The translations under genes and the position numbers were made by a program. A model generated the notes under the pieces. It made no database searches, had not been told where the DNA came from, and saw only the letters and a program-made list of their open reading frames with translations. From Paenibacillus sp. FSL R7-0204 (GTDB lineage Bacteria > Bacillota > Bacilli > Paenibacillales > Paenibacillaceae), in contig NZ_JBBOCA010000001.1 of NCBI RefSeq assembly GCF_038002225.1, positions 1,116,001 to 1,180,000 of the forward strand: DNA of 64,000 bases. The letters are read 5' to 3'. Each line of letters begins with the position of its first letter. Position 1 is the stretch's first letter. Shown piece after piece: positions 1,987 through 24,693 of this stretch.

Positions 1987-1999
1987 AAAATTTCAAATA

Positions 2000-2033: not shown

Positions 2034-2087
2034 ATGGAGTCTTCCGAAGCATCCATTCTACCGAAAGAGGTCGAATTTCCAGCCTAA

Positions 2088-2149
2088 TTGTCCATTTTTA
2101 GTCCTATCTGGACAAAGGGGTTATTTATACCTACTTCTCCCTTTATAGT
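2088..2149 (+). promoter_or_regulatory. candidate activator-dependent promoter of the NRPS-PKS operon
   Basis: TTGTCC at 2088-2093 and GGACAA at 2110-2115 form a perfect inverted repeat with a 16-nt spacer. A smaller inner repeat (GTCC/GGAC, 2101-2104 and 2110-2113) shares its right arm. TATAGT at 2144-2149 is a 5/6 match to a -10 box, but there is no good -35 box 16-18 nt upstream. That pattern fits a promoter needing an activator bound at about -40 to -68. The assignment is inferred from sequence alone. Confidence 0.35.
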
Positions 2150-2207
2150 TAGTACATTGGGAACGTAATACAGATTTTTCTGGAAAGAGGGAGGAGGTCA
2201 CTGGTAT

Positions 2208-2930
2208 ATGAAGTTATTTTGCTTTTCTTATGCAGGCGGCTCGGCCATGTTTTACGGGAATTGGAAGGATTATTTTCAAGGCGTGGTATCCGTTATTCCA
2301 ATGGAATTGCCAGGTAGAGGCAGCCGTTTTACAGAACCGTTATGCCGCAGTATTGAGGAAATGGTGGATGATGCCTTTAATAAGGTTCGGAGGCAGCTGG
2401 ATGGCTCTGCGTACATATTATTTGGTCACAGTATGGGGACTATTGTCGTTACTGAGCTCATTAACAGGTTATTGCTTGCAGGATACTATGAACCTCAGCA
2501 TGTATTTCTCTCCGGGAGATTTCCGCCACATTTGGGTACTAAACGTCCTATAAGTGAATTCCCTGAAGAGCAGTTCATCGACGAAATCTACCGGATAGGA
2601 GGAACTCCACGGGAGCTTATTGAGAACAAGGAGTTATTTCAGATGTTCATCCCGATTTTGCGGGCCGATTATAGAGCGTTAGAAACATATTCATATAGAG
2701 ATAGGGGCTTTCTCTGGAACTCGGATATCACTGTATTAACTGGGAAGGAGGATGCAACACTTACCGAATCCGATAACAAAGCCTGGAAGAACTATACTCT
2801 TGGAAGCTGTAGCTTCATCGAATTCCCGGGAGGGCATTTCTATCTTTTTGAGCAAGCCAAGAGCGTTACAACATTAATTAATGAGACACTGCTGAGCAGA
2901 AAATATGCTGAAAGGAGTATGAGTTACTAA
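2208..2930 (+). CDS. type II thioesterase, first gene of the NRPS-PKS operon
   Basis: This 240-residue alpha/beta-hydrolase resembles the GrsT/SrfA-D family of proofreading thioesterases. The N-terminus LFCFSYAGGSAMFY is typical. The nucleophile is Ser75 in GHSMG, and the catalytic His is in GGHFYLFE near residue 210. Such enzymes remove misprimed or stalled acyl groups from carrier-protein phosphopantetheine arms in the cytoplasm. A strong GGGAGGAGG site precedes the ATG. The stop codon overlaps the start of the next gene by one base (TAATG), which indicates translational coupling and one operon. A second type II thioesterase lies at 19333-20115. Confidence 0.9.
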   Translation: MKLFCFSYAGGSAMFYGNWKDYFQGVVSVIPMELPGRGSRFTEPLCRSIEEMVDDAFNKVRRQLDGSAYILFGHSMGTIVVTELINRLLLAGYYEPQHVFLSGRFPPHLGTKRPISEFPEEQFIDEIYRIGGTPRELIENKELFQMFIPILRADYRALETYSYRDRGFLWNSDITVLTGKEDATLTESDNKAWKNYTLGSCSFIEFPGGHFYLFEQAKSVTTLINETLLSRKYAERSMSY

Positions 2931-4135
2931 TGAGAACAATAACTGCGCATAAAAAAGAAACCGCACCACTGAATTATCTTACGGATGAGGAGAAGAAGTT
3001 TCAGAATCATGTAAAGCATTTTGCCCAGACAGAAGTTAGCCCGCTTATCCATCAAATGGATAATGATGCGAAGATGGATAAAGGACTTACAAACAGTCTG
3101 TTTACAGAAGGGCTGATGAATATAGAAATTCCTGAGGCGTATGGGGGATCAGCACATCCCTTTTTCTATTCGATCCTGGCGATTGAGGAAATGGCAATTG
3201 TTGATCCGGCAGTAGCCGTCTTTATCGATGTGCATAATACACTGGTAGTTAATGCATTTATACGCTGGGGAACCGAGTCGCAGAAAGAAAGGTTTTTGCC
3301 AAGATTGGCGAACGGCACTGTAGGTGCATTCTCCATTACGGAAGAAGAAGCGGGCAGTGATGCGGCCTCTTTGACCTGTCGGGCAGAGAAGGTAGACAAC
3401 GGGTATATTTTGAACGGTAAAAAACACTGGGTAACCAATGCGGCTGAAGCCGAATTGTTCATCATGTTCGCGAAGGTTCCTTCCTCCAATCCAGCACAGT
3501 CATCCAGCAGCGGGCATTTAACCGCATTCATCATTGACAAGAACGTATCTGAAGGAATAACTGTTTGTGAGCCGCAATTAAAAATGGGAATCCGGGCAAG
3601 CTCCACCTGCGACATGATTATGGATAATGTGTTTGTACCCGATGAGAATGTTTTGGGTTCTCGAAGCAAAGGGCTAATGATCCTGCTTGAGACGTTGTCA
3701 GATGGAAGAATTGGTATAAGTGCTCAAATGTTAGGCCTTGCGCAAGGCGCTTTTGATGAAGCTGTGAAATATTCAGGAGAACGAATTCAATTTGGAGAAT
3801 ATATCTCCACTTATCAGGGGGTACACTTTCCTCTTGCTCAGCTGGCAACGGAAATTCAGGCAGTTCGATTAATGATCTACAATGCGGTGCGGATGAAACA
3901 AGCTAAATGTAACTTTAGAGAGCTTGTCCTTCATTCAAGCATGGTTAAGCTGTACGCTTCTCAGGTGGCGGAAAGAGCTGCCTCGCAATGCCTGGAGATT
4001 ATTGGCGGGAAGGGATACATGAAAGGAAATGTATTAGAAAAGTTATATAGAGATGCTAAAATCGGAACGATTTATGAAGGCACATCGAATATACAGCTTA
4101 GTAATATAGCAAGGCATTATGTGAAAATTAAATAG
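2930..4135 (+). CDS. acyl-CoA dehydrogenase family flavoprotein
   Basis: The 401-residue protein has the full acyl-CoA dehydrogenase fold: helical N-terminal domain, the FAD/substrate motif FSITEEEAGSDAA and GKKHWVTNA in the middle domain, and a C-terminal helical bundle with LEIIGGKGYMK. The probable catalytic base is Glu383 in YEGTSNIQ. Family members introduce an alpha,beta double bond into acyl thioesters using FAD. It is coupled to the upstream thioesterase and ends 15 nt before the FAAL-containing NRPS. It may therefore desaturate the fatty-acyl starter on the loading ACP or as its CoA ester; that substrate is an inference. Confidence 0.9.
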   Translation: MRTITAHKKETAPLNYLTDEEKKFQNHVKHFAQTEVSPLIHQMDNDAKMDKGLTNSLFTEGLMNIEIPEAYGGSAHPFFYSILAIEEMAIVDPAVAVFIDVHNTLVVNAFIRWGTESQKERFLPRLANGTVGAFSITEEEAGSDAASLTCRAEKVDNGYILNGKKHWVTNAAEAELFIMFAKVPSSNPAQSSSSGHLTAFIIDKNVSEGITVCEPQLKMGIRASSTCDMIMDNVFVPDENVLGSRSKGLMILLETLSDGRIGISAQMLGLAQGAFDEAVKYSGERIQFGEYISTYQGVHFPLAQLATEIQAVRLMIYNAVRMKQAKCNFRELVLHSSMVKLYASQVAERAASQCLEIIGGKGYMKGNVLEKLYRDAKIGTIYEGTSNIQLSNIARHYVKIK

Positions 4136-4150
4136 TGGAGGGTATATTGC

Positions 4151-7100
4151 ATGAGAGACTTATATGCTGTGGTCCAAGCGTCGGATACTCTTGATTCTGA
4201 GGAATTGAAAAAGAACTCAACAATTGTCGAGATACTGCAAAAACGTGCAGCGATCCACCCGGATCAACCAGCTTTTTGTTTTCTCACATATTTGAGTGAC
4301 AAAAGACAGGAGCATACGCTGAACTTTAAACAACTGGATACAGGAGCACGCAAGGTAGCTGCTTATATGCAAAGCTTGGGGTTGTCCGGGAAACGGGCCA
4401 TTCTAATGTATCCGGATGGTTTGGATTTTATTGTCGCTTTTTTGGGTTGTCTTTACGCGGGAGTAACTGCCGTCCCTCTCTATCATTTCATTACCAGAAG
4501 AAAGTCTGACCGGATGTTGTCTATCATAGAGGATTGTGATCCCCAAATCTTTATGAGCGATAGCAAGCGCATTTCAACGATCAAAAAATTTACCGATAAT
4601 CAATTCTCCGGCACAACCTTTAATTGGTTAACAGTGGAACAGGCGGAGGAAGTGAATCCGGACGATTTCAAGCCAATGAACTACCAGCGAGATGAACTGG
4701 CTTACCTGCAGTATACTTCAGGCTCCACCTCTACACCTAAGGGAGTCATGATCACGCATAACAACATCATGCACAATATGGATGTTAACCAATGGAGCTT
4801 TGACCTTACACAGGATTCCATTGGCGTGTCATGGATTCCTCATTATCATGATATGGGACTTGTGCTCACGATCTTACAGCCCATTTATTCAGGATATCGC
4901 CAAGTCTTCATGCAGCCGGCAGATTTCGTATCAAGACCGTTCCGGTTTTTGAAAGCGATATCCGATTTTAAGGGTACCATGACACTTATGCCCAACTTTG
5001 CCTATGAACATTGCGTTCTCCATGTTACAGCCGAACAGAAGCAGGAGCTAGATTTATCCAGCATTGTTATAGCCATTAACGGTGCTGAACCTGTTCAATA
5101 TTCTACTCTGGAAGTGTTCAATCAGGCCTTCCAAGTATGCGGCTGGAAGGAGAATGCTATGGCCCCTGCATGGGGGCTGGCAGAGGTGACACTTACGGTA
5201 ACAGCCCATAAGCCGACGGGTGGTCCGGTCCGGGTATTGGATGTAGATCAATATAAGCTTGAGCAGAATATCGCTGAACCGGCCGGCAAGGATTCAGGTA
5301 CGATACGTTACTGCAGTGTGGGAGCAGCGAGAGCGGATACACAGGTGGTGATTGTTAACCCTGATACCCTGACAGAGTGTCCCGAGGGGCATGTCGGAGA
5401 GCTTTGGGTATCATCAGATAGCGTCGCTATTGGATATTGGAATAAACCTGAGAGCACTAACGATACGTTCGCAGCTTATTTGGCTGTAACGGGAGAAGGG
5501 CCTTTTATGCGTACAGGCGACTTGGGTTTTGTATGGGAAGGGCAGCTATATATTAGCGGCAGAATAAAAGACGTAATTATTATCCGGGGTTCGAACTATT
5601 ATCCAAATGATATTGAGTTTACGGCAGCCCATTGCCATCCCCAGCTTGTACCTAACAGCTGCGCAGCATTTGCTGTCACGGAGGGGAATCAGGAATGCTT
5701 ATATATCGCCCAAGAAATTAAACGGACGGAGACCAACCGGATAGATGCACTGGGGATCTGTGACAGCATACGTAAATCTGTTGCTGAAATTCATGGATTA
5801 CAAGTACAAGGGATCTTGTTATTGCGCTTTGGAGGGATACATAAGACATCCAGTGGAAAAGTTCAACGCAAGCAGTGTAAAGAAGCCTACTTGCAGGGTG
5901 AGCTTGATGTGTTGCATACCAGTATCGCCGGTCAGGACAATAATGATGTGACAGAACCATCCGCTGAATTAAAGCAAATCGAGAAGTGCCTCCTTGAGCT
6001 AGTTGGCAGTTCAACCCGTATAGACTGCAAGCAAGTCCGTATTACAAGCAGTATGGTGACTATGGGACTCGATTCAATGGCGATGATGATGCTCAAGCAA
6101 AAAATCGAAGATATGTTCCTGTGCCAGCTTGAACTGGCTGATCTATTCAACTGCACATTGGCGGAATTGGCATGTATTATTAAGGATTTCACCCATTCGA
6201 AAGAAGGGTCAATACATCCATTAGAGGATTTGGCAGCGCTCGGTTCTATTAAGGACGTAGAGAGTGAAACCTTCCCTTTGACGGAGCTTCAGAATGCCTA
6301 TTGGATGGGGCGTAATGAAGGATTTGAGATAGGTGGAATTGCCGCTCACGGGTACCTCGAAATAAAGGTGAAACGAATGGATGTGGATTATAAGCGATTA
6401 AACCTTGCATGGCAGAAAATTGTAAAGCGCCATGAAATGCTCAGAGCTATGATCACTTCAGACGGAAAACAGCTTATAGTAGATTCGAACTCAAGCTATG
6501 ATATTACTTACCACGATTTAAGTACACTGCATTCAACCCTTCAACAAGATCACTGCGAAGAAATAACACGCAAACTCAGTCATCAGGTTATCCCTCTGGA
6601 TACTTGGCCGATGTTTGAAATTCATCATAGCAAGCTAGGCCCACAGGAAAGTATTTTGCATTTCAGTATTGATCTAATGATTGCGGATATCTGGAGCATC
6701 AATCTGCTATTTAAAGAGTGGTACCAGACGTATGTAGATCTGGAAACATCGCTCAATGAATTAAATTACACCTTCCGGGATTATTGCCATGCGTTAGAGC
6801 TGCTTAAGGGAACTGAGTTATATCGGAAATCTGAGATTTATTGGAAAAATCGTGTGGAGCAGCTGCCTCAGGCCCCCGTCCTGCCATTGGTTAAGTCGTT
6901 AATGAATCTGGGTGAAATCAAATTCCATCACCGGAGTTACACACTTCCTTCACACCTGTGGAACAAGTTAAAGGAACAGTCTTCCTTACACGGAGTGACG
7001 CCCTCTGTAGTTATTCTTTCGGCGTACTCCAAAATACTCGGAATGTGGAGCCAATCGGCACAATATTCACTGAACTTGACGCTCTTTAACCGGCAGCCCC

Positions 7101-10100
7101 TTCATCCCGATATTCACCTGCTCGCTGGCGAGTTCACTTCAGTTCTGGTGTTTGGAGTAGACCTGGCACGAGCCGAATCCTTTGCGGACTATGCGCAACG
7201 GATACAGCGCCAACTGGCTGAAGATATGGATCACCGTTATTACAGTGGTGTTAATGTAGTTAGGGATCTTGGTCATAAGTGGGGGAAATCACCATATGAG
7301 TCTGTTCTACCGGTAGTCTTCACAAGTGCGATATCCAGCGAATCCTCCATGGTATTCGGTGGAGGCGACAATTTTTTTGGAAAGGTAGAGACCCAATCCC
7401 AGACGCCTCAGGTGTACCTGGATCACCAGGTGTATGAAGAGGGAGACGATTTGATTCTAAGCCTGGATGCCATAGAAGAATTGTTTCCAAATAAGATGCT
7501 GGATGATCTATTCCATGTGTACATTAAATACCTGGAGGAACTGGCCTTACATTCGGAGAGATGGAGCAGTCTGGACGGCGGTCTTCTGCCTGAGAAGCAG
7601 TTGGAGCGGAGAACTACGTATAACCGGACCGAAGCACAGTTGTCCGAAGTGCCTGATGAGATGCTGTACAGCCGGTTTGTGAAGCATGCGATTCAAAAGC
7701 CGGGGAATGCAGGAATCATTACATCTGCACGTACATTAACGTATGGGGAAATATTGAACGGTGCCAGTTTTATTGCAGCTTCATTAAAAGCACAGGGAGC
7801 TAGACCGAATGAATTAATTGCTGTATCTATGGAAAAATGCTGGGAACAAATCGTAGTTGTTCTGGGAGTTGTAATGGCAGGAGCCGCTTATGTGTGCATA
7901 GATCCTGCATTGCCTAAAGCGCGTCAAGAATATGTGATGGAGCATAGCAGTGTCAGGTTTATTTTCGCCCAACGCCTCCTTAAGGGCCTGCCTCCCGGCA
8001 TAACCTGTTGTGTCGTGGATGAGACTATTTTACAGGAGCAGGTCAAAATTGTAGAGACTGATGCCAGTCCGGATGATTTGGCCTATGTGTTATATACTTC
8101 GGGATCAACAGGACTGCCTAAAGGGGTGTCCATCTCTCACCGGGGAGCACTTAATACGATTCTGGATATTAATCATAAGTTTGAGATTCATGAAAAGGAT
8201 CGGATTTTGGCATTGTCTTCTCTCAGTTTTGACTTGTCGGTGTACGATATTTTTGGAATTCTCCTGGCGGGAGGAGCTATTGTTATCCCTGATCCGTCTA
8301 CGGAACGCAACCCTGCACATTGGTTAGAGATGATGAACCGGCATAAAGTTACGATTTGGAATTCGGTTCCATCCTTGATGGAGATGCTGGTGGAGACAGT
8401 AGAAGCGATGCGATGCAGCATCCAATTAAGGACGGTACTAATGAGTGGTGACTGGATTCCATTACATCTTCCTGAGCGTATTTGGCGGCTTGGGCCTGCT
8501 ACGGAAATTATCAGTCTCGGCGGAGCTACTGAAGCATCTATCTGGTCGATCTACCATCCTCTCCGTTATATAGATTCTTCTTGGAGCAGTATTCCGTACG
8601 GGAAACCTTTGTCCAATCAAAAGGTTTACGTGCTTCACCCGGATTTAAGTGATTGCCCGGAATGGGTGACAGGCGAATTGTACATTGGCGGTGCCGGAGT
8701 CGCTTTGAATTACTTTGGGGATCAGGAAAAGACGAAGAGGTCATTTGTGCAGCATCCTGTTACAGGTGAACGGATCTATAGAACAGGAGATTTAGGGCGT
8801 TTTCATCCTGAGGGTCATATCGAATTCCTGGGCCGTGAAGACTTCCAGATTAAGCTGGGCGGCTTCCGTATTGAACTGGGCGAAATCGAGAGCGTGATTC
8901 ATCAGCATCCGAAGGTAAGAAGAGCTGTAGTTAAGAAGGTCTTAGGTAAAGAAGGAAACGCCAGCTTAGCCTCCTATCTTGTTCTGCATTCAGCGGTTGA
9001 GTCAGAGGACATGGCAAAACAAGGCGGAGATGATTTCGGCCGCAATATGTCACAAGAGCTGCGGGACGACAGCTTCATTACTGACAAGCAGGAAAGGATT
9101 CTTTTTAAACTAAGCCACAAGGGACTTAGAGCGCCTGAAATGTTAATGCGTGAAGCCGGAGAAACGGGAGAACACACGATAATGCTGGAGGCGCAACCAT
9201 TCGATCATGACGATTATATTAAACGGTCCAGCTCCAGACGTTTTCTGGATACTCAGGTGTCTCTGCGGACTCTTTCCAGCTTCTTAGGGTGTCTGCAAGG
9301 CAGGGAAGTTGGGGATGCAGAACGTTTCCGCTATGGTTCGGCAGGACATTTATACCCTGTGCAGGTGTATTTATGTATTAAGGACAATAAGGTAGGTGGA
9401 TTAAGCGGAGGTACTTATTATTATCATCCTTTGGATCATACGCTGATTCCTCTCCGTACCTCCAAGGAAATGAATGGGGATCTGCATGTCATTGAGAATA
9501 GAATGATATACGAATCGGCGGCCTTTACGATTTTCCTGATAGGAAAGCTCCCGGCGATTGAACCCTTGTACGGCAAACGTTCCAGAGACTATTGCCTGAT
9601 TGAAGCGGGTCTAATCACACAGCTGCTGGAGACCTCTGGTATTCAGAACGAAATTGGAGTATGCCAAATCGGTGCATTAACCGATGAGCGTCGGGTTCCC
9701 GAACTATTGGCGTTGGATTCAGATCATATCCTTCTTCATACTTTATTGGCTGGAGGGGTTGATTATGCAGATCCGCTGCGGGGAGTTCCTACGGAAGCGA
9801 AAGACAACTTACCCATTGAGTCCTTCCCAGAACGAGTAGAAGAGGAAATTCGTAAATATTGTACTCAAAAGCTCCCGCATTATATGGTGCCTTCATCCTT
9901 TACATTTATGGACAGATTGCCGCTCACGCCGGTTGGCAAGGTCGATCTGAAGGCATTGCCGGAACCGGCAATTGAACGGCCAACGGATCAGGGCAACACG
10001 AACCCGGCAATGAATGAGATGGAAGCTCTAATCCATCGTATATTTTTCGCGAAATCAGGCATGAATGCCCAGCTTGATGTCCACAAAAGCTTCCTGGAGC

Positions 10101-10345
10101 TTGGGATTGATTCATTGACAATCACCCGGGCTTGGAGAGAGATCGTACAAGAGACCGGGATTCAGTTCCCCGTTGTCCGCGTTTTTGAAAAACCTACGAT
10201 CGCCAGCTTGGCCGCCTTCCTAATGCAGCAAGATGCAGAATCGCAGAGTAAACTGCTTGTAAATGAAGCCATTGCGGATACAGCGGTTAGCGAGAAAGCG
10301 GCGAAACAGAGACAAGCATTAATCAATCGAAGCAAACGCCGCTGA
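4151..10345 (+). CDS. NRPS: FAAL-ACP-Cy-A(Cys)-Ox-PCP, lipo-initiation and thiazole-forming module
   Basis: 2064 residues. A fatty-acyl-AMP ligase domain occupies about 20-600 (YTSGSTSTPKG near 188, WIPHYHDMGL, MRTGDLGF near 453, GRIKDVIIIRGSNYYP). An acyl carrier follows with phosphopantetheine Ser642 (GLDSM). A heterocyclisation domain begins near 707 (FPLTELQNAYWMG) and carries DLMIADIWS at about 841-849, the DxxxxDxxS signature that replaces HHxxxDG. The adenylation domain (YTSGSTGLPKG near 1315) reads DLYNLSLIWK at the ten specificity positions, the cysteine code. An FMN-type oxidase of the SagB/McbC kind (about 1640-1880; SSSRRFLDT, YGSAGHLYPVQ) is inserted between motifs A8 and A9, as in EpoB. 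The final PCP has Ser1988 (GIDSL). It should load a fatty acid, condense and cyclise Cys, and oxidise thiazoline to thiazole. A GGAGGG site precedes the ATG. Confidence 0.93.
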   Translation: MRDLYAVVQASDTLDSEELKKNSTIVEILQKRAAIHPDQPAFCFLTYLSDKRQEHTLNFKQLDTGARKVAAYMQSLGLSGKRAILMYPDGLDFIVAFLGCLYAGVTAVPLYHFITRRKSDRMLSIIEDCDPQIFMSDSKRISTIKKFTDNQFSGTTFNWLTVEQAEEVNPDDFKPMNYQRDELAYLQYTSGSTSTPKGVMITHNNIMHNMDVNQWSFDLTQDSIGVSWIPHYHDMGLVLTILQPIYSGYRQVFMQPADFVSRPFRFLKAISDFKGTMTLMPNFAYEHCVLHVTAEQKQELDLSSIVIAINGAEPVQYSTLEVFNQAFQVCGWKENAMAPAWGLAEVTLTVTAHKPTGGPVRVLDVDQYKLEQNIAEPAGKDSGTIRYCSVGAARADTQVVIVNPDTLTECPEGHVGELWVSSDSVAIGYWNKPESTNDTFAAYLAVTGEGPFMRTGDLGFVWEGQLYISGRIKDVIIIRGSNYYPNDIEFTAAHCHPQLVPNSCAAFAVTEGNQECLYIAQEIKRTETNRIDALGICDSIRKSVAEIHGLQVQGILLLRFGGIHKTSSGKVQRKQCKEAYLQGELDVLHTSIAGQDNNDVTEPSAELKQIEKCLLELVGSSTRIDCKQVRITSSMVTMGLDSMAMMMLKQKIEDMFLCQLELADLFNCTLAELACIIKDFTHSKEGSIHPLEDLAALGSIKDVESETFPLTELQNAYWMGRNEGFEIGGIAAHGYLEIKVKRMDVDYKRLNLAWQKIVKRHEMLRAMITSDGKQLIVDSNSSYDITYHDLSTLHSTLQQDHCEEITRKLSHQVIPLDTWPMFEIHHSKLGPQESILHFSIDLMIADIWSINLLFKEWYQTYVDLETSLNELNYTFRDYCHALELLKGTELYRKSEIYWKNRVEQLPQAPVLPLVKSLMNLGEIKFHHRSYTLPSHLWNKLKEQSSLHGVTPSVVILSAYSKILGMWSQSAQYSLNLTLFNRQPLHPDIHLLAGEFTSVLVFGVDLARAESFADYAQRIQRQLAEDMDHRYYSGVNVVRDLGHKWGKSPYESVLPVVFTSAISSESSMVFGGGDNFFGKVETQSQTPQVYLDHQVYEEGDDLILSLDAIEELFPNKMLDDLFHVYIKYLEELALHSERWSSLDGGLLPEKQLERRTTYNRTEAQLSEVPDEMLYSRFVKHAIQKPGNAGIITSARTLTYGEILNGASFIAASLKAQGARPNELIAVSMEKCWEQIVVVLGVVMAGAAYVCIDPALPKARQEYVMEHSSVRFIFAQRLLKGLPPGITCCVVDETILQEQVKIVETDASPDDLAYVLYTSGSTGLPKGVSISHRGALNTILDINHKFEIHEKDRILALSSLSFDLSVYDIFGILLAGGAIVIPDPSTERNPAHWLEMMNRHKVTIWNSVPSLMEMLVETVEAMRCSIQLRTVLMSGDWIPLHLPERIWRLGPATEIISLGGATEASIWSIYHPLRYIDSSWSSIPYGKPLSNQKVYVLHPDLSDCPEWVTGELYIGGAGVALNYFGDQEKTKRSFVQHPVTGERIYRTGDLGRFHPEGHIEFLGREDFQIKLGGFRIELGEIESVIHQHPKVRRAVVKKVLGKEGNASLASYLVLHSAVESEDMAKQGGDDFGRNMSQELRDDSFITDKQERILFKLSHKGLRAPEMLMREAGETGEHTIMLEAQPFDHDDYIKRSSSRRFLDTQVSLRTLSSFLGCLQGREVGDAERFRYGSAGHLYPVQVYLCIKDNKVGGLSGGTYYYHPLDHTLIPLRTSKEMNGDLHVIENRMIYESAAFTIFLIGKLPAIEPLYGKRSRDYCLIEAGLITQLLETSGIQNEIGVCQIGALTDERRVPELLALDSDHILLHTLLAGGVDYADPLRGVPTEAKDNLPIESFPERVEEEIRKYCTQKLPHYMVPSSFTFMDRLPLTPVGKVDLKALPEPAIERPTDQGNTNPAMNEMEALIHRIFFAKSGMNAQLDVHKSFLELGIDSLTITRAWREIVQETGIQFPVVRVFEKPTIASLAAFLMQQDAESQSKLLVNEAIADTAVSEKAAKQRQALINRSKRR

Positions 10346-10380
10346 CATTATATGGGCAAGCCACAGAAAAGGAGAGAGTC

Positions 10381-13300: not shown

Positions 13301-16300
13301 AATTTCCTACGGTTGAAGCTTTAGCACAAGAAATCGGGCTTGCTATTTCTTCAAGAGCAGATCAGCCTTCTGAACCCGCGCAAGAGCTTTGGAAGCTCAA
13401 TAATGTTATTGAGGATGTGGAAAGGAGAGCTGATCCGTTCCCATTAACCGAAATGCAAGAAGCACAATGGCTGGGACGGATATCCAGTTTCGGTGTGGGC
13501 AACATAGCGGCGCATGTCTATTACGAATCGGAGAAAGAGGGACTTGATATTCAGCGTCTGGAGCAAAGCTGGCAAGCGTTGATCGACCGCCATGAGATGC
13601 TTCGTTCAGTCCTGTTACCCGACGGAGGCCAGCGCATCCTTACGGAGAGATTAACCTATAACATTCGGAATTTGGATGTGCGGAAACTGGATCACGAGTC
13701 GGCTGAGGCAGAAGCGCTAGTTGTCCGGTCCCAAATGGACCACGTTGTCCGTCCTGTAACGGAATGGCCTCTCTTTGAGATTCGTACAACGCAGTTACCC
13801 GGGAACAAGGTGCGTATTCATTTCAGTATGGATTTGGTGATTTGCGATGTGGGCAGCATGCGGATTCTGCAGAGCGAGTGGGCGCAGCTGTACAGGGGAG
13901 AAGCTCTTCAGCCTGCGGTGTTAGACCTTTCCTTCAGGGATTATGTTCTGGCAGAGAAGCAACTGAAGGATTCACCGCCATACGTCAAAGCGGATGAATT
14001 CTGGGAGCAGAAGATAAAGAGTCTGCCAGCGAATACAGCTCCTGAGCTGCCAGTGGCTAAGGATATTTCATCTATAAAAGAAATCCGGTTTAAACGTTGG
14101 AGTTTTGTTGTTGAAACCTCCAGATGGGATCAAATTAAAGAGGCTGCTGTAAAACGGGCGTTATCTCCTTCCAGCGTGATTCTAACCGTGTTTGCTCAGG
14201 TACTCGGTCTTTGGAGCAAATCCAATGAGTTTTGTATTAATACACCGATCATTAACCGCTTGCCTATTCATGAGCAGGTCAAGCAGATTGTAGGGGAATT
14301 TGCCTCCTTTGCTCCGGTTGTTGTCAGCCTGAATAAACAGAAGACCTTTGAAGAATGTGCCAGAGAATTACAGCAGAATAGTTGGGAGAATCTCGATAAC
14401 CGGTATATAAGCGGAACTTCTATCTTACGTAAGCTTGCAAAGCTGCGAGGCGGGAGTTCAGGACCAGTGTTTCCGGTTGTCTTTACTAGCACCATCGTAC
14501 AAAAGGTTGCAGGTGAAAAAGAGTTCTTCGAGACATTGGGTGATTATTCCTACCTGATATCTCAGACTCCTCAAGTATGGCTGGATCATACGGCAATGGA
14601 GATGGAGAATGGCCTCTTGCTAAGCTGGCATGCGCTGGAAGAGATGTTCCCGCAAGGAATGCTGGACCAAATGTGGGAGACTTACGAAGGAATTATGAAT
14701 CGGTTAGCTACTGATGAGTCTACATGGGGCAGTACTTATAATCAGCTACTTAGAGAGGTTGATCTATCCATCGTTCTTGAGGCCAACGCCACGGATCAGC
14801 CAATAGATTGTGAATTGTTACACGATCCAATCTTCCGTTATGCCAAGGCGAATCCCAATCAAATCGCGTTAGTGACCTCCCGGAAGGAAATAAGCTATGG
14901 AGAATTGGATAAGCTGGCAACAGCAGTAAGCTGCAAATTGATGGAGAAGCAATTACGGCGTGCGGAGTTGGTTCCTGTCATCATGGAGAAAGGGTACGAG
15001 CAGGTAGTTGCGGTATTGGGCATTCTGCAAGGAGGCGGGGCTTATCTGCCGCTGGACCCGGAGCTGCCCCGGGAAAGATTGCAATATATATTGGAGAGCA
15101 GCGCGGTCAGAGTGATTCTGATACAGGAGAAATATCGTGCTTCTCTTCAGTGGATTCAGGACTTGGGAATTGCAGTCGAAACGATTACCTCACATAATGC
15201 AGTGTCCCCGGATAAGGTTACACGGCGGGATTCTTGTCAGGAGCTGGATGATTTAGCTTATGTCATTTTTACATCTGGTTCTACGGGAATGCCCAAAGGC
15301 GTTATGATCACCCACCGGGCAGCACAAAATACGATCATGGATATCAATGCCAAATTCCAGGTTAGTTCAGAGGATATAGGGTTTGCACTCTCCGAGCTGA
15401 ATTTCGATTTATCGGTATACGATATATTCGGTATCCTGGGAGCAGGAGGGGAATTGGTGATTCCTGATGCCCATTCCTCACGTGACCCTAAGCATTGGCT
15501 GGATATGCTAAGTCTTCATAAGGTGTCTGTGTGGAATTCTGTTCCTGCACTGATGGCGATGCTGGTCGAATATACAGCGCTCTTAGAGGCCAGTCTTCCC
15601 TTTAGACTTGTTCTTCTGAGTGGTGACTGGATCCCGTTGAATTTAGCTTCCCGCATAAAGAAGCAGGCGGCATTGGCGCAGGTAATGGGTCTGGGAGGTG
15701 CGACGGAGGCTTCAATCTGGTCCAATTATTACCCGATTCAGGAGGTAGACCCTTCATGGAGGAGTATACCTTACGGTAAACCGTTATCCAACCAAAAATT
15801 CCACGTATACAATAAGGAGTTCGTTGATTGTCCGGTGTGGGTACCTGGCGATCTGTATATTAGTGGAAGAGGGTTGTCACTGGGATATTTGAATGATGTC
15901 ACGCTCACAGACCAAGCTTTTATAACCCACCCTGATACAGGTGAACGGTTGTATAGAACAGGCGATATGGGGCGTTATCTTCCCGATGGGAACCTGGAGT
16001 TTATGGGACGCGAAGATTTTCAAGTGAAAATTTCCGGATTTCGGATTGAGCTGGAAGAGATTGAATCCGTGTTGTTAAAGCATATAGCCGTAAAAGGGGT
16101 CGTTGTCCATCTTGCAGGCAAGGATACGGATAAGAAAACTCTGACCGCTTACATCCTTGTAAAGGACGGAATGACGCTTGATACGAAAGAACTGAAATTA
16201 TTCGCTGCAAATGCTCTACCTAATTACATGGTACCGAATCAATATATGATTCTTGATGAATTCCCGCTTACTGTGAACGGTAAAATTGATCGTAAATCGC

Positions 16301-17922
16301 TTCCCGTTCCGGAGAATACCGGCAGAAAGTCGAAAGCTCAAGACCTGTCGGACAATAAAGTACTGAATATCTTAATCCCCATATTTGCAGAAGTGCTTCG
16401 TCTAGCGGAGGAGAAGGTTGATATCCATACCAATTTCTTTACCCTTGGAGGGGATTCGATTAGGGGAATTCAAATTATTAGTCTTGCTTCCAAGGAAGGC
16501 ATAGAGATTTCACCGCAGTTATTCTTTGAACATTCTACACTAGCTGAGCTGGCAGAGGTTCTGAACAATAGTATGGTTGAGCTGGAAGATGGAGAGGAGC
16601 AGTATGTTGGAGAATTGCCCTTAAGTGCTGGTCAACAGCTTCTACTGGAAAGGTATGAATCTCTCCCAGCCTTAAATCAATCGCTTCTGTTCAAGGTGGA
16701 AAAGTTAATGGAACCGGAAAAATTGGAAAGTGCGTTTCAGTATGTAGTTTCCAGGAATGCAGCATTGCAAATGCAGTTCAACCATAGTGACGGAGTCTGG
16801 ACACAAGCTCTTTACAGTAAGGTAAAGAAGCCGGAGATTGATTATGTAGATTTGAACGGCCTGGAGGAAGACGAGGTTCATAAATTGACCGAACAGATTC
16901 GTTTTGACCAGGAGCAGCAGTCAGCAGACATCCTGATCAAGCTAATTTTTTTGGATCAGCCAGATCAGAAATTGCAGTATATACTGCTGGTTTGGAATGA
17001 GCTGATTATGGACCAGCGTTCCGTAGGGCTATTCCTGGAACAGATTTATGATTGCTACAATCAGATCTCTGCGGGAGAGAAGATTAAGCAGATTCACCGT
17101 ACCAAGCAATTTAGGGATTGGCTGAATCTGAACAGGGAGGAGCCTGCAGAACAAAGTCTGCAAGATTGGGATGACTCATCCGTAGCCCTTCACTTGGGTA
17201 ATCCAACAGAAACCTCTGACCGTATGTGTACCCTAAACTTTACATTTACGAAAGAACCCGTCTGGAGTGCCGTGCTTGAGGAAGCAAAATTACAGGATTA
17301 TGAGCTTCTCCTCATTGCAATGGGGTATTCCATGCAAGAGCTGGGTTATGCGCAGCAGCTTTGGGTTGACTGTATGTGTGAAGCGGAGCAGAAGGTACTC
17401 GTGCAAAATGGAATGAATCATATCTTGGGCCAATTAGGCAGCATACATCCCGTTCACTTCCGCTCAGATTATAGATCAGGATTGAGCGAATACATTCGAG
17501 CAGGCAAGACAACTATCCGTAATTGTAAAAAGTCGACAGGGGGCAAGCCCTCCATCCATCCAAAGATTAAGTTCTCCTTCAGTGAAGCACTGGAAAAGTT
17601 GAATAAGAGAATTGGTGTGAGCAGCGCAGCTTCATTGATCTCGTCAACCAGCGAAAGAGCTTACCGTAGCCCCTACTTACTAGAGATAAGTGCATCTGCT
17701 GATGAGGAAGAATTGTTATTTCAATTCCAGTTTAATGCTGCCCAAGTAGATGATAGACGAATGGAGAAGCTGGGATACAGTCTATTACAGAATTTGCAGT
17801 CCTTATTCCTGTCTATCAAAAGTGAGGATTTGGATGTTTATGTGGCAAGTGATTTTCCTGATATGAGTTGGAGCGATGCAGAACTTAAATCATTCATGGG
17901 GATATTGGCAACTAGCCATTAA
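10381..17922 (+). CDS. hybrid PKS-NRPS: KS-AT-ACP-Cy-A(Cys)-PCP-degenerate E
   Basis: 2513 residues. The ketosynthase has Cys180 (TACSTA), His316 (HGTGT) and His355 (SNLGHLE). The acyltransferase has Ser627 (GHSIGEY) and HAFH at 723-726, which predicts malonyl-CoA. There is no KR, DH, ER or methyltransferase, so the beta-keto group should remain. ACP Ser949 (GGHSLL) is followed by a cyclisation domain from about 1020 with DLVICDVGS at 1151-1159. The adenylation domain (FTSGSTGMPKG near 1630) again reads DLYNLSLIWK, for cysteine. PCP Ser2026 (GGDSIRG) follows. The last 440 residues (from about 2077) look like an epimerisation domain, but NELIMDQ stands where HHxxxDG should be and the EGHGRE motif is lost, so it is probably inactive. 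No integral thioesterase is present. The ribosome binding site is GGAGAG, 36 nt after the previous gene. Confidence 0.93.
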   Translation: MDNNFGALDIAVIGMDCRFPDAASPEEFWGNLVSGLESVIPISDEELLYSGIRQETLEHPNYVKYGSFIDHYDKFAASFFGYSAKEAAMMDPQHRIFLELCWHALEKSGCDSEQYNGSIGVFAGSTFNSYLLNNVLNGRGAGSSADNFFVQISNDKDNLATRVAYKMNLSGPALSIQTACSTALVAIHYASQSLLNQECDVALAGGVTVRSPHKTGYMYQSDMILSKDGHCRPFDADASGTIFGSGAGVVVLKRLEDAVRDGDIIHAVIKGSSVNNDGGEKVGYTAPGRKGQETVIKTALALADIPQHSITAVEAHGTGTFLGDPVEFESLNQVYGSSHHQQQIALGSVKSNLGHLECAAGVASFIKMVLCLKHKILVPSLNYQTPNPHLQIEKSPFYVNTLVKDWERVEGEPLRCAISSFGIGGTNAHLILEEWTETKNSAASSPELVLLSARSQHALSEMSASMACFLRSNPEVSLGDVAHTLRVGRRAFEYRLAAVGSTASDLAGVLEDYETKNKWIGFIKQTKPRIVFMFPGQGSQYIHMAKELYDSELVFRQLIDQGADLLQEFMKINVLAVLFPSEGEEAEAERLLTLTHITQPVMFLIEYALAKLWMSWGINPDACIGHSIGEYAAACLAGVFTFEQGLMLTAKRGEFIGNLPAGSMCGISASEQDITPYLTEKLSVAAVNGPGFTVVSGPENDIRKFMQTIEENGISCSRLHTSHAFHSWMMQPAYEQYLRFMQGITLNQPTIPYLSNVTGDWIEAGQATSPEYWASHIISSVRFSDGADKLLENEESLFIEVGPGNVLSIFMKNIQPTTKVFASLPHAREKSHSVKYIYGSAGKLWTNGAVFHWNEFSEEGTRRKVELPVYPFERRRYWMEPHTHDLDTDFDVVISDSESGLDEQDKVLYSSGQAPRNELEQKTMDAFSAVLGFHSIGIYDSFFELGGHSLLAIQLLSRINEQFGIEIKLNEFYKFPTVEALAQEIGLAISSRADQPSEPAQELWKLNNVIEDVERRADPFPLTEMQEAQWLGRISSFGVGNIAAHVYYESEKEGLDIQRLEQSWQALIDRHEMLRSVLLPDGGQRILTERLTYNIRNLDVRKLDHESAEAEALVVRSQMDHVVRPVTEWPLFEIRTTQLPGNKVRIHFSMDLVICDVGSMRILQSEWAQLYRGEALQPAVLDLSFRDYVLAEKQLKDSPPYVKADEFWEQKIKSLPANTAPELPVAKDISSIKEIRFKRWSFVVETSRWDQIKEAAVKRALSPSSVILTVFAQVLGLWSKSNEFCINTPIINRLPIHEQVKQIVGEFASFAPVVVSLNKQKTFEECARELQQNSWENLDNRYISGTSILRKLAKLRGGSSGPVFPVVFTSTIVQKVAGEKEFFETLGDYSYLISQTPQVWLDHTAMEMENGLLLSWHALEEMFPQGMLDQMWETYEGIMNRLATDESTWGSTYNQLLREVDLSIVLEANATDQPIDCELLHDPIFRYAKANPNQIALVTSRKEISYGELDKLATAVSCKLMEKQLRRAELVPVIMEKGYEQVVAVLGILQGGGAYLPLDPELPRERLQYILESSAVRVILIQEKYRASLQWIQDLGIAVETITSHNAVSPDKVTRRDSCQELDDLAYVIFTSGSTGMPKGVMITHRAAQNTIMDINAKFQVSSEDIGFALSELNFDLSVYDIFGILGAGGELVIPDAHSSRDPKHWLDMLSLHKVSVWNSVPALMAMLVEYTALLEASLPFRLVLLSGDWIPLNLASRIKKQAALAQVMGLGGATEASIWSNYYPIQEVDPSWRSIPYGKPLSNQKFHVYNKEFVDCPVWVPGDLYISGRGLSLGYLNDVTLTDQAFITHPDTGERLYRTGDMGRYLPDGNLEFMGREDFQVKISGFRIELEEIESVLLKHIAVKGVVVHLAGKDTDKKTLTAYILVKDGMTLDTKELKLFAANALPNYMVPNQYMILDEFPLTVNGKIDRKSLPVPENTGRKSKAQDLSDNKVLNILIPIFAEVLRLAEEKVDIHTNFFTLGGDSIRGIQIISLASKEGIEISPQLFFEHSTLAELAEVLNNSMVELEDGEEQYVGELPLSAGQQLLLERYESLPALNQSLLFKVEKLMEPEKLESAFQYVVSRNAALQMQFNHSDGVWTQALYSKVKKPEIDYVDLNGLEEDEVHKLTEQIRFDQEQQSADILIKLIFLDQPDQKLQYILLVWNELIMDQRSVGLFLEQIYDCYNQISAGEKIKQIHRTKQFRDWLNLNREEPAEQSLQDWDDSSVALHLGNPTETSDRMCTLNFTFTKEPVWSAVLEEAKLQDYELLLIAMGYSMQELGYAQQLWVDCMCEAEQKVLVQNGMNHILGQLGSIHPVHFRSDYRSGLSEYIRAGKTTIRNCKKSTGGKPSIHPKIKFSFSEALEKLNKRIGVSSAASLISSTSERAYRSPYLLEISASADEEELLFQFQFNAAQVDDRRMEKLGYSLLQNLQSLFLSIKSEDLDVYVASDFPDMSWSDAELKSFMGILATSH

Positions 17923-17938
17923 GAAGGGGAGGAAGTTT

Positions 17939-19318
17939 ATGATGTCAACTGGACTTGCAGAAACAAGGAGCCCATCTGCAGTGATGAGGAACCTGGAAGA
18001 TATTTATGAGCTAAGCCCATTACAACTGGATAACTTTAACCGCTACCTTACTTCACAGGGAGATGGTTTGTTTCACGAGAATCTGATCTTTAACTTTGAT
18101 GGGGAAATCGACGACAGGATTTTTACTCAGTGCTGGCATGAAATATTGAAGCATCATTCGATTTTGCGAACAGCTTTTTTTAATAAAGGTATTGGGAAGC
18201 CTGTGCAGGCTGTATTAAGGAAGGCCCTGTTTCCTATTCAAATACACGATTGGACAGGCATAAGTGAGGAAGAACAAGCACACAGGATGGAGGTGGTGAT
18301 AGAGGCGGACCGGTTAATCCCGTACCGCATGGAGGAAGCGCCATTAATGAGAGTAGCGCTAATCCATCTTAATGATCGTAAGTTCCGTCTCTGGTGGCGT
18401 TTTCACCATATGATCATGGATGGGTGGGCATTTACGGTAGTGCTGTTTGATTTCCTGCAGCTCTACAAGCAGTTAAGCAGTTCAGGGGAGATAGCACTCA
18501 TGCTTCCAGGATATCCTTATAAGGATTACATTCGTTATCTTAAAAATAGGGATACTGCTGAGGAAAGTGCTTTCTGGCCCGAATATTTACAAGGATGCAC
18601 GCATCAGCCTCCGCTGAGCCTGCTGAAGCCTCCAGCACCAGACGCTCCTGTAAGTCAGGTGCGCCAGGGAAGGCTCGATTATCATATATATGAATTGTTT
18701 CAACCTTTACAAGAAGTGATCAAGGCGAGCGAAGTAACGATGAATGGTGTATTTCAAGGGATCTTCTCGTTATTAATCAGTCATCTGAGCGGCGGGGGAG
18801 CTGACGTTGTCACCGGACAGACAGTAGCAGATCGGCCGCTGCTGCTTGAGAATGCTCAAGCACGCGTAGGTTTGTTCGTTAATACCTTGCCGATTCGTTG
18901 TCAAATTCGGAAGGAGGAGGGCTTCGTTGAGTGGGTCAGAGGCATTCAGACGTCTATGATGAATACGTTTCGCTTTGCTTCTTCATCAGAGCAGGAGATT
19001 AAACATTGGTGTGGCATGTCCGATGACCGGGACCTGTTCCATAGTGCTTTGGTATTTAAGAATATCCCGCTTGCTGATGATCCGTTTGTAGGTCTGCCCT
19101 TCCGGACGGATGATTACAGTCTGGAGAGTCGCCCGCATTTCGCGCTTTCATTATTTGTGTGGCCGGAAGCTAAGCTTGAGCTTAAGCTCATTTATGATAA
19201 TAGTCTTTACAGCAGCGAATCTGCTTGGAGTGTTCTGAACAACGTCAGAGCTGCGCTCGTGAAATTTATTGAAGATCCTGAGATCTCGGTGTTATCCATG
19301 ATGGATTTCGATATTTAG
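17939..19318 (+). CDS. free-standing NRPS condensation domain protein
   Basis: A single condensation domain of 459 residues with no adenylation or carrier domain. The active-site motif is intact: FHHMIMDGW, with His156, His157, Asp161 and Gly162. C-domain landmarks are present, such as YELSPLQLDNF at the N-terminus, GQTVADRP and VGLFVNTLPIR. An upstream reading frame opens at 17876, but the AGGGGAGG site at 17925-17932 places the start at ATG 17939 (or 17942). It follows the dead epimerase-like domain directly. It may catalyse chain release onto an amine or alcohol, or a final condensation, acting in trans; substrate and reaction are inferred. Confidence 0.88.
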   Translation: MMSTGLAETRSPSAVMRNLEDIYELSPLQLDNFNRYLTSQGDGLFHENLIFNFDGEIDDRIFTQCWHEILKHHSILRTAFFNKGIGKPVQAVLRKALFPIQIHDWTGISEEEQAHRMEVVIEADRLIPYRMEEAPLMRVALIHLNDRKFRLWWRFHHMIMDGWAFTVVLFDFLQLYKQLSSSGEIALMLPGYPYKDYIRYLKNRDTAEESAFWPEYLQGCTHQPPLSLLKPPAPDAPVSQVRQGRLDYHIYELFQPLQEVIKASEVTMNGVFQGIFSLLISHLSGGGADVVTGQTVADRPLLLENAQARVGLFVNTLPIRCQIRKEEGFVEWVRGIQTSMMNTFRFASSSEQEIKHWCGMSDDRDLFHSALVFKNIPLADDPFVGLPFRTDDYSLESRPHFALSLFVWPEAKLELKLIYDNSLYSSESAWSVLNNVRAALVKFIEDPEISVLSMMDFDI

Positions 19319-19332
19319 CAAAAGGAGTAGAG

Positions 19333-20115
19333 ATGATGCGAGTACGTACTAATAACGGTAGGCTCACGGTAACATACAGCCCATTATTTGTTGCTCCAAA
19401 GCTTAATCCCCAGGCGACTTGTCGTATATTCTGTCTGCCCTATGCCGGAGGGATGGCCGAGATTTATTACCCCTGGTTGAATGTTCTTCCGGAAGAGTTC
19501 GAATTGGTGGCAGTGCAATACCCGGGTCATGTCCCGGGGACCGGGGATGAGCTGTATACCTGTCTAAATTCGCTTGCTGAAGAGATCGCAAATGAGATTA
19601 GCGCCTTCAGCGATAAGAAATATATTATTTTTGGACATAGTATGGGTGCACTCATAGCATATGAAGTAACCAAACGGTTAGCCGGAAAAAAAGTCAGACA
19701 ACCGGAGCATTTATTTATTGCTGCCCGCACTCCGCCGAATCTTCCTGTAGTTGCCCCTATGATTCACAAAATGTCGGACAGCGAAATTATTCAGATAGCG
19801 CGGGCTTTTAATGCTTTGCCCGAAGAGGTGCTTCAGAATGAAGACATCCTCCAAATGATTATTCCTACATTAAAAGCTGACTTCGAGATGATTGGGACAT
19901 GGAAACATGATCACAATGCACCTCCGCTTAATGTTCCGCTGTGTGCCTTTACGGGGATGTTTGACAGTTTAGGGGTTCCAGAACAGATGAAAGAATGGAG
20001 CAACTATACCAGCAATTCATTCAGGATGATAACGATGCCGGAGAAACACTATTTTATTCTAAACCCCGCTGTTCAGGAAGACATTATTCATATTATTCAA
20101 GATTGCATACGTTAG
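19333..20115 (+). CDS. type II thioesterase, second copy
   Basis: A 260-residue alpha/beta-hydrolase with RIFCLPYAGGMAEIYY at the N-terminal core, Ser103 in GHSMGA and a C-terminal EKHYFI carrying the likely catalytic His. It belongs to the same GrsT/SrfA-D family as the protein at 2208 but differs clearly in sequence. It lies 14 nt after the stand-alone condensation gene and is therefore in the operon. Because the megasynthases lack an integral thioesterase, one of the two copies may act in product release rather than only proofreading. Confidence 0.9.
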   Translation: MMRVRTNNGRLTVTYSPLFVAPKLNPQATCRIFCLPYAGGMAEIYYPWLNVLPEEFELVAVQYPGHVPGTGDELYTCLNSLAEEIANEISAFSDKKYIIFGHSMGALIAYEVTKRLAGKKVRQPEHLFIAARTPPNLPVVAPMIHKMSDSEIIQIARAFNALPEEVLQNEDILQMIIPTLKADFEMIGTWKHDHNAPPLNVPLCAFTGMFDSLGVPEQMKEWSNYTSNSFRMITMPEKHYFILNPAVQEDIIHIIQDCIR

Positions 20116-20141
20116 ACAACAAGGCTGGAAGGAAGGAAGAT

Positions 20142-21494
20142 ATGAACACAAATGATAAAAAAATATTTATGCTTGGGGAGGAGGCTATTCCTAAGGCACT
20201 GTTAAAGCTCTCCACACCAATGATATTAGGAATGCTGATAAATGCAATCTACAATGTAGTTAACGCTTTGTTTGTAGGTGGACTTGGAACGAGCCAAATG
20301 GGGGCCGTGTCTGTTGCCTTTCCGATCTCTATGCTCGTAGTGGGGGTAGGCTTGACCTTCGGGAGCGGGGCCGGATCTTATATTTCGCGTCTTCTTGGTG
20401 AAGGAAGACATGATCAGGCGAGCAGGACTGCATCCACCGCAGTATTAACCAGTATAGTAGCCGGCGGGTGCTTGATAGCGGTCATATTAGGGTTTCTTGA
20501 GCACGTGCTTACTTTCCTGGGGGCAACGGATACTATTATGCCTTATGCGACGGCTTACGCTACCCTCTATATCGGAAGTTCGATGCTTAACGTATTTAAT
20601 GTTACCATGAATAACATTGTGGCCTCAGAAGGCGCAGCCAAATTTAGTATGATTGCAATGCTGCTTGGTGCAGGGTTGAATATTATACTGGACCCCATTT
20701 TTATATATGGTCTGGACTGGGGAATAAGAGGTGCAGCAATTGCCACAATGGTTGCCCAAGGAACCACTACCATCCTTTATTTATGGTACATTTTGGGCCG
20801 GAAAAGCTTCGTGAAGATTTCATTTCATAACTTCTCCCTGGATGGAGAAATCTACCGACAAATCTTGAAGGTGGGTGTTCCTACCTTTATCTTTCAGGTC
20901 CTCACCAGTGTGTCCATAGGCTTGACTAACACGGCAGCAAGTCATTATGGAGATACCGCTGTGGCATCAATGGGCATCGTGACCCGGATTTATTCCATTT
21001 TTTCTTTTGTGGTATTTGGATTTACCAAAGGATTTCAGCCGCTTGCCGGATATAGCTATGGCGCCAAAAAGTATGACCGTCTGCAAGACACGATTCGAAT
21101 TGCGATTAAATGGTCAACCTGGTTTTGTGGAATAGGGGCGTTCATCCTAATTGTGTTCTCAAGACCGATTATTGCTCTGTTCTCTAACGATCCGGATGTA
21201 ATTCGAATAGGGAGTCAAGCTCTAATTGCAAACTGCTCGATGTTTATCTTCTTTGGGTTCCAAATGGTATACATCACCTTATTTCTGGCTATTGGAAAGG
21301 CGAAAGAAGGAGCCATACTCAGCATGTGCAGGCAAGGAGTATTTTTTATTCCGACCCTATTGATCTTGCCCCAATTTATGGGCCTGAACGGTGTCATTGT
21401 TTCACAGGCTGTAGCTGATTTCCTGACAGTGCTCTTAACGGTGTCTTTTGCCTGGAAGATGAGAAAGAATGTTTCTGGGGTGGTAACCGGATAG
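20142..21494 (+). CDS. MATE-family multidrug/metabolite efflux transporter
   Basis: A 450-residue polytopic membrane protein with about 12 hydrophobic segments and MATE landmarks: PMILGMLINAIYNVVN near the N-terminus, PISMLVVGVG, and a second half beginning about GVPTFIFQVLTSV with AGYSYGAKKYDR. The reading frame extends upstream into the thioesterase, but ATG 20142 with its GGAAGGAAG site is the likely start. MATE proteins export organic compounds by Na+ or H+ antiport. As last gene of the operon, it is the best candidate exporter for the product. A terminator follows. Confidence 0.9.
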   Translation: MNTNDKKIFMLGEEAIPKALLKLSTPMILGMLINAIYNVVNALFVGGLGTSQMGAVSVAFPISMLVVGVGLTFGSGAGSYISRLLGEGRHDQASRTASTAVLTSIVAGGCLIAVILGFLEHVLTFLGATDTIMPYATAYATLYIGSSMLNVFNVTMNNIVASEGAAKFSMIAMLLGAGLNIILDPIFIYGLDWGIRGAAIATMVAQGTTTILYLWYILGRKSFVKISFHNFSLDGEIYRQILKVGVPTFIFQVLTSVSIGLTNTAASHYGDTAVASMGIVTRIYSIFSFVVFGFTKGFQPLAGYSYGAKKYDRLQDTIRIAIKWSTWFCGIGAFILIVFSRPIIALFSNDPDVIRIGSQALIANCSMFIFFGFQMVYITLFLAIGKAKEGAILSMCRQGVFFIPTLLILPQFMGLNGVIVSQAVADFLTVLLTVSFAWKMRKNVSGVVTG

Positions 21495-21515
21495 TTGGTA
21501 ACCGGATAATTAAAG

Positions 21516-21559
21516 AGAACCAGCCAGTCCTCTATTATTGGGGATTGGCTGGTTCTTTG
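21516..21559. terminator. bidirectional terminator between convergent genes
   Basis: 15-nt arms at 21516-21530 and 21542-21556 pair with a single mismatch. They sit between the plus-strand MATE gene and the minus-strand ABC permease. The strand signals are a T-rich right flank and an A-rich left flank. Confidence 0.75.
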
Positions 21560-21560
21560 T

Positions 21561-24634: not shown

Positions 24635-24693
24635 TCGTGTAACCTCCGTTTGATTTGATATGATTTGATCTCAGAGTTGCTGTTGCAAAAGCT

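What the first reader, a model, noticed from the sequence alone, without database searches (positions are those of the whole stretch)
2208..21494. Compact FAAL-NRPS-PKS locus predicted to make a lipo-thiazolyl-keto-thiazoline
Seen: seven co-directional, tightly spaced genes encoding FAAL-ACP-Cy-A-Ox-PCP and KS-AT-ACP-Cy-A-PCP plus tailoring, release and export functions. Known: Cy domains with DxxxxDxxS make thiazolines, an Ox domain inserted in an A domain makes thiazoles, and an AT with HAFH uses malonyl-CoA. Inferred: a fatty acyl-thiazole joined by an unreduced CO-CH2 unit to a thiazoline carboxylate, a possible metal-chelating lipid. I do not recognise a characterised cluster with this exact order. 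The start of the chain (a fatty acid rather than salicylate) separates it from yersiniabactin and pyochelin.
Basis: partly seen in the sequence, partly recalled or inferred. Interest (0 to 1): 0.88.

Follow-up and report, generated by a model that had tools for sequence, protein, structure and literature searches.

The report
Lipid-thiazole assembly line in Paenibacillus
A Paenibacillus genome carries an apparently acquired gene cluster that should build a fatty-acid-tailed, two-sulfur ring compound, possibly a metal-binding one, and related copies of this apparently undescribed assembly line occur in distant bacteria.

Summary
In detail: seven same-strand genes (2208-21494) encode TEII, acyl-CoA dehydrogenase, FAAL-ACP-Cy-A(Ox)-PCP, KS-AT-ACP-Cy-A-PCP, standalone C, TEII and MATE. 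Both A domains carry a cysteine pocket, both Cy motifs are intact and the AT is malonyl-type, so an alkyl-thiazolyl-keto-thiazoline thioester is the best reading. The same line, dehydrogenase included, occurs in the sulfate reducer Desulfoluna butyratoxydans beside a siderophore-type uptake set (TonB receptor, FecCD, PF01497) and an AraC regulator; Clostridium estertheticum and some metagenome proteins match too. This supports the metallophore guess, but the uptake genes are not shared by the Paenibacillus locus, which has none near it and no Fur box. There it lies on a 30.4-kb insertion, absent from the three close relatives whose two flanks I compared. I found no described product; MIBiG could not be searched. 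Open: the dehydrogenase's substrate, the releasing nucleophile and the metal. New variant of a known kind.

The parts
1..25939 (.). window part of a 30.4-kb insertion (left edge 4,458 bp before the window, at C1:1111543); carries sensor/regulator genes, the whole cluster and an ABC transporter
   Evidence: flanks close together at 95-96% identity in G116, 94% in G115 and 82-93% in G089, with 0.69, 0.09 and 0.70 kb in place of the 30.4 kb; GC 0.44 on the left part of the insertion versus 0.49 to its left and 0.54 to its right
1..1986 (+). C-terminal part of a 1276-aa hybrid sensor kinase (starts at -1844); possible regulator
1999..2027 (+). terminator-like hairpin before the operon
   Evidence: 21 such sites found in the region, 16.0 expected; weak
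2208..2930 (+). type II thioesterase 1 (GHSMG)
   Evidence: PF00975 6.3e-40
2930..4135 (+). acyl-CoA dehydrogenase-family flavoprotein with YEGT (catalytic Glu, recalled); overlaps the preceding stop
   Evidence: Desulfoluna orthologue 50%
4151..10345 (+). NRPS 1: FAAL-ACP-Cy-A(Ox)-PCP, 2064 aa
4208..5920 (+). FAAL domain
   Evidence: PRK05850 487 bits, FadD32 451 bits, both under those models' own cut-offs; solved FadD32/FadD28-type FAALs
5951..6220 (+). ACP 1 (MGLDS)
6263..7570 (+). Cy 1, DLMIADIWS
   Evidence: EpoB and BmdB Cy
7643..9010 (+). A 1, pocket DLYNLSLIW = Cys (positions and code recalled); its C-terminal part continues after Ox (about 9818-9946)
9131..9790 (+). Ox (FMN nitroreductase-type) inserted in A 1
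   Evidence: PF00881 9e-9; 48% in Desulfoluna
10016..10240 (+). PCP 1
10381..17922 (+). PKS-NRPS: KS-AT-ACP-Cy-A-PCP-E*, 2513 aa
10396..11700 (+). KS
11956..12870 (+). AT, GHSIGE/HAFH (malonyl-type; Desulfoluna has HAYH)
13126..13335 (+). ACP 2
13426..14745 (+). Cy 2, DLVICDVGS
14821..16305 (+). A 2, pocket DLYNLSLIW = Cys (positions and code recalled)
16351..16575 (+). PCP 2 (LGGDS)
16603..17919 (+). E*: epimerase-like domain without catalytic His (NELIMDQ in place of HHxxxDG)
17939..19318 (+). standalone condensation domain, HHMIMDG (ORF opens at 17876)
19333..20115 (+). type II thioesterase 2 (GHSMG)
20142..21494 (+). MATE exporter (ORF opens at 19995)
21514..21558 (+). 19-pair terminator-like hairpin after the operon
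21561..24634 (-). FtsX-type permease (792 aa) and ABC ATPase (232 aa), MacB/LolD-like, on the same insertion
24694..25824 (-). PEMT/ICMT-like membrane methyltransferase, on the same insertion

Best explanation
It is a lipid-primed NRPS-PKS line making a two-sulfur, probably chelating, lipid. Steps read from domains: FAAL adenylates a fatty acid and loads ACP1; Cy1-A1 condense it with Cys and close a thiazoline; Ox oxidises this to a 2-alkylthiazole-4-carbonyl on PCP1; KS-AT-ACP2 add one malonyl unit, left as a ketone; Cy2-A2 condense the beta-ketoacyl chain with a second Cys and close a ring, giving alkyl-thiazolyl-CO-CH2-thiazolinyl on PCP2 (tautomer: planar enaminone). Inferred: the acyl-CoA dehydrogenase desaturates the acyl-ACP1 chain, as its gene sits next to FAAL in both clades; the E* domain does not epimerise but acts as a docking platform; the standalone C domain releases the chain onto a soluble amine or alcohol, with type II thioesterases proofreading, while in Desulfoluna, whose C lacks both His, a thioesterase releases it; MATE exports it. 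Inferred function: metallophore binding metal through thiazole N, enol O, azoline N and carboxyl O.
Against: No siderophore uptake gene is among the genes annotated on the insertion; the nearest FecCD is over 1.1 Mb away (PF01497 not searched genome-wide). So the uptake set is not conserved between the two homologous loci, which is the mark by which the cited benchmark recognised seven of its eight false positives; only one other locus with flanks could be read. No Fur-box-like site near 2208 (5 matches in the window, 3.6 expected, none there). No amine- or acceptor-making gene is in the cluster. Desulfoluna's C has PE for HH, so release differs between clades, and its AT has HAYH for HAFH. 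I recall no tested precedent for a Cy domain using a beta-ketoacyl donor (not searched). Nothing here measures a product.
Confidence: 0.45

Rival explanations
1. Same scaffold, but the dehydrogenase acts on the second thiazoline while it is a carrier-bound thioester (alpha,beta-dehydrogenation of an acyl thioester), giving a bis-thiazolyl ketone.
For: The dehydrogenase is conserved with the line, module 2 has no Ox, and oxidation of a carrier-bound thiazoline is shown for BmdC, an FMN enzyme of another family (passages). NCBIfam also lists the prolyl-PCP dehydrogenases RedW (188 bits) and PigA (180 bits), both under cut-off.
Against: Nearest kin are ordinary acyl-CoA dehydrogenases: short/branched-chain ACAD 354 bits and AcrC-type 317 bits, above RedW and PigA. 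The gene sits next to the FAAL gene, not module 2, in both clades.
Confidence: 0.3
2. In Paenibacillus the product is not a metallophore but an exported antimicrobial or signalling lipid; the uptake set in Desulfoluna is a clade-specific use or a coincidence.
For: The insertion holds a MATE exporter, sensor kinases and response regulators and a MacB/LolD-like ABC transporter, but no recognised uptake genes, and no Fur box lies near the operon. Transporters not conserved in a homologous cluster were the benchmark's sign of coincidence.
Against: Uptake genes can lie elsewhere; FecCD genes exist in the genome, and a TonB receptor is not expected in a Gram-positive. The predicted scaffold is a ready chelating pocket (inference).
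Confidence: 0.38
3. An ordinary yersiniabactin/pyochelin-type siderophore cluster.
For: Shared Cy-A-PCP and KS-AT-ACP-Cy logic; pyochelin (dihydroaeruginoic acid) synthetase and Irp2/HMWP2 Cy among solved relatives.
Against: FAAL start; no salicylate-making or salicylate-loading gene, methyltransferase, KR or thiazolinyl reductase among the seven genes.
Confidence: 0.05
4. A decayed or silent relic.
For: E* has no catalytic His.
Against: The seven frames are open; the His loss in E* is shared by 7 of 7 sequences, own included, so it looks ancestral; cluster kept at 98.2% in a sister species.
Confidence: 0.05

Closest known systems
Micacocidin / yersiniabactin / pyochelin family (thiazoline siderophores)
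   Same: Cys heterocyclisation by Cy domains, KS-AT-ACP-Cy hybrid logic (recalled); micacocidin also starts with a FAAL (C6:0, Table 2 of PMC11837247, passages)
   Different: No salicylate or alkylsalicylate head; the fatty acid goes straight onto Cys; an Ox domain makes a thiazole; ketone not reduced; no methyltransferases; different terminus
Bacillamide synthetase BmdB/BmdC
   Same: Cys-Cy-A-PCP with FMN oxidation on the carrier and a terminal C domain condensing with a free amine (PMC8795117, passages)
   Different: No FAAL, no PKS module; C is fused there, separate here; no decarboxylase here; its oxidase is separate, here Ox is inserted in A
Enacyloxin-type C-domain chain release (PDB 6cgo, title; mechanism recalled)
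   Same: a condensation domain as the chain-releasing enzyme of a PKS line
   Different: acceptor unknown here; azole substrate
X-domains of glycopeptide NRPSs (PDB 4tx2/4tx3, titles; role recalled)
   Same: condensation-family domain at a line's end, read as a recruitment platform
   Different: E* is nearest to epimerases, not X-domains; its partner is unknown
Mycobactin acyl-chain loading (MbtM FAAL / MbtN acyl-ACP dehydrogenase; recalled)
   Same: FAAL paired with an ACAD in siderophore synthesis
   Different: sequence kinship to MbtN is weak (59 bits)
Hectochlorin (FAAL-linked, Table 2 of PMC11837247; its thiazoles recalled)
   Same: FAAL start and thiazoles in one product
   Different: as recalled, its azoles do not sit directly on the fatty acyl start unit; not checked

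Membership tests
FAAL-initiated hybrid NRPS-PKS cluster | FAAL domain with an ACP at the start | tested here: met
   present in 4 of 5 NRPS1 sequences aligned, the fifth (P0100) being a shorter piece
FAAL-initiated hybrid NRPS-PKS cluster | fatty-acid substrate used | not testable with these tools
   needs biochemistry
Cy-type azoline synthetase | DxxxxDxxS in Cy and a Cys/Ser/Thr A pocket | tested here: met
   Cy motif in both modules, Cy1 in 5 of 5 and Cy2 in 7 of 7 sequences; pocket read in full only for own and Desulfoluna; positions and code recalled
Azole-forming module | FMN Ox domain inserted in A | tested here: met
   PF00881, present in 5 of 5 sequences
Salicyl-capped thiazoline siderophore (yersiniabactin/pyochelin) | salicylate synthesis and loading | tested here: not met
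   absent from the seven genes; FAAL instead
NRP metallophore cluster (two of PF00593/PF01032/PF01497) | siderophore uptake genes beside the line | tested here: not met
   Paenibacillus locus: none among the genes annotated on the insertion, nearest FecCD over 1.1 Mb away; a TonB receptor is not expected in a Gram-positive
NRP metallophore cluster, Desulfoluna homologue | same rule | tested here: met
   all three Pfams
Epimerisation domain | HHxxxDG catalytic motif | tested here: not met
   no His there in 7 of 7 sequences, own included
Epimerisation domain | E-type fold | tested here: met
VibH-like standalone C | close kinship to VibH | tested here: inconclusive
   no chain named VibH among 52 sequence hits; subtype not resolved by fold

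The most novel reading that the evidence does not exclude
A new structural class of metallophore, an alkyl-thiazole/enaminone/azoline lipid with no catechol, salicylate or hydroxamate, spread across phyla by horizontal transfer, whose line ends in a catalytically dead epimerase that recruits a free-standing condensation domain for release.
Probability: 0.27. Interest if true: 0.75.

Novelty: new variant of a known kind. Interest (0 to 1): 0.5.

Why it matters
If right, this is a metal-binding lipid class that chelator-gene rules would miss: the antiSMASH metallophore authors say NRPS-made thiazol(id)ines could not be detected without many false positives (PMC12971057, passage). The main text of a 2025 FAAL review holds no word beginning with thiazol or heterocycl (PMC11837247, term search), so lines running from FAAL straight into Cy look little described, though its table lists hectochlorin, which I recall to hold thiazoles. 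The conserved dead epimerase plus free C domain is a testable case of a non-catalytic docking domain in chain release. Homologues in Desulfoluna and C. estertheticum, anaerobes as I recall, also ask how the Ox step runs without oxygen.

Full report
Observation. Seven co-directional ORFs fill 2208-21494. Pfam and NCBIfam give TEII, acyl-CoA dehydrogenase, FAAL-ACP-Cy-A(Ox)-PCP, KS-AT-ACP-Cy-A-PCP plus a second condensation-family stretch, a standalone C, TEII and MATE. No NCBIfam equivalog reaches its cut-off for the two synthetases in the 25 rows shown for each (of 110 and 126). Motifs are intact: DLMIADIWS and DLVICDVGS in Cy, TACST in KS, GHSIGE/HAFH in AT, HHMIMDG in C, GHSMG in both thioesterases. 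By hand, using GrsA pocket positions from memory, both A domains read DLYNLSLIW, the cysteine code (recalled); BmdB, whose module makes a Cys thiazoline, is among the best solved relatives of both A domains, though linear gramicidin synthetase, with two A domains in the chain, scores higher. A 19-pair terminator-like hairpin follows the operon at 21514-21558. I call the host Paenibacillus because the nearest C protein (96%) is named so; the genome itself is unnamed.

Relatives. P0003 has a 96% match named Paenibacillus sp. FSL P4-0338, then 54-61% matches in metagenomes and MAGs (one labelled a Thermoplasmata archaeon), and 44-45% in Clostridium estertheticum. PKS-NRPS proteins with nearly the same Pfam set include C. 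estertheticum (54% over its length) and a Bacillota MAG (60%); the longest-contig lengths listed for the C and PKS-NRPS proteins agree in three cases (14678, 17083, 217750), and those for NRPS1 and PKS-NRPS of the MAG (155381), which suggests linkage, but I could not read those contigs. The Desulfoluna butyratoxydans locus could be read: ACAD, FAAL-NRPS, PKS-NRPS-E*, C and thioesterase in the same order, both A pockets again cysteine-like, AT with HAYH, then a U32-type protein, a thioesterase fusion, a methyltransferase and another thioesterase. Around it lie a TonB receptor, FecCD permease, ABC ATPase, PF01497 binding protein, two ABC half-transporters, an MFS protein and an AraC regulator. 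By the transporter rule quoted in PMC12971057 (passages only) that is a siderophore-like locus; the same passage says that seven of the rule's eight false positives had transporters not conserved in homologous clusters, and here the Paenibacillus locus does not share them.

Rarity and mobility. Standalone orthologues were found in 2 of 100 genomes of the genus, own included (own and G102), 1 of 395 of Desulfoluna's phylum (Desulfoluna itself), 1 of 398 of the own phylum (own) and 2 of 392 of the order (own and G102 again); these draws overlap, and three further genomes reached the threshold only with C domains inside long ORFs. Relatives G116, G115 and G089 have the two flanks 0.69, 0.09 and 0.70 kb apart, placing a 30.4-kb insertion at C1:1111543-1141939. 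No integrase or transposase is among its 14 ORFs of 90 aa or more. G102 matches window 1-29518 at 98.2%, against 91-96% at 40-50 kb.

Mechanism. Shown by sequence: domains, motifs, order, conservation. Following from family knowledge: fatty acyl start, Cys thiazoline, oxidation to thiazole, one malonyl unit, second Cys ring. Inferred: dehydrogenase on acyl-ACP (its nearest kin are acyl-CoA dehydrogenases), E* as platform, C as releaser onto a soluble nucleophile, metal binding.

Known or new. Each part is known. The combination FAAL-Cy(Ox)-KS-Cy-E* with a free C was not found described in the literature searches listed under Tried and rejected, over an open-licence library; MIBiG was not available. 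I therefore call it a new variant of a known kind, with moderate interest: an orphan cluster, but conserved across phyla, with a clear scaffold prediction and a testable release step.

Noticed in passing
window 1-1986 with G000:C1:1114157 onward: A 1276-aa hybrid sensor kinase starts 1,844 bp before the window and ends just upstream of the cluster; a response regulator/kinase pair and a LytTR regulator lie before it, on the same insertion.
   Followed up: partly
window 21561-25824: FtsX-type permease, MacB/LolD-like ATPase and a PEMT/ICMT-like membrane methyltransferase run convergently to the cluster on the same insertion; possible self-protection or export.
   Followed up: partly
window 31418-31731 and 34537-34893: Two arrays of the same 51-bp tandem repeat (6.2 and 7.0 copies), about 2.8 kb apart, flank a region with an IS3-like integrase gene (33276-34313); G116 and G115 have one such array without the part between.
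   Followed up: no
window 39725-39988: T-box leader (RF00230, 107.6 bits) directly upstream of a class I Glu/Gln-type tRNA synthetase gene at 40070.
   Followed up: no
L011 11318-16119: Desulfoluna homologue carries three thioesterase proteins, a U32-type protein and a methyltransferase downstream of a C domain lacking both motif His: a different ending on the same line.
   Followed up: partly
P0012: A homologue of the C protein is labelled Thermoplasmata archaeon, longest contig 4.2 Mb; misbinning or a transfer into archaea, not checked.
   Followed up: no
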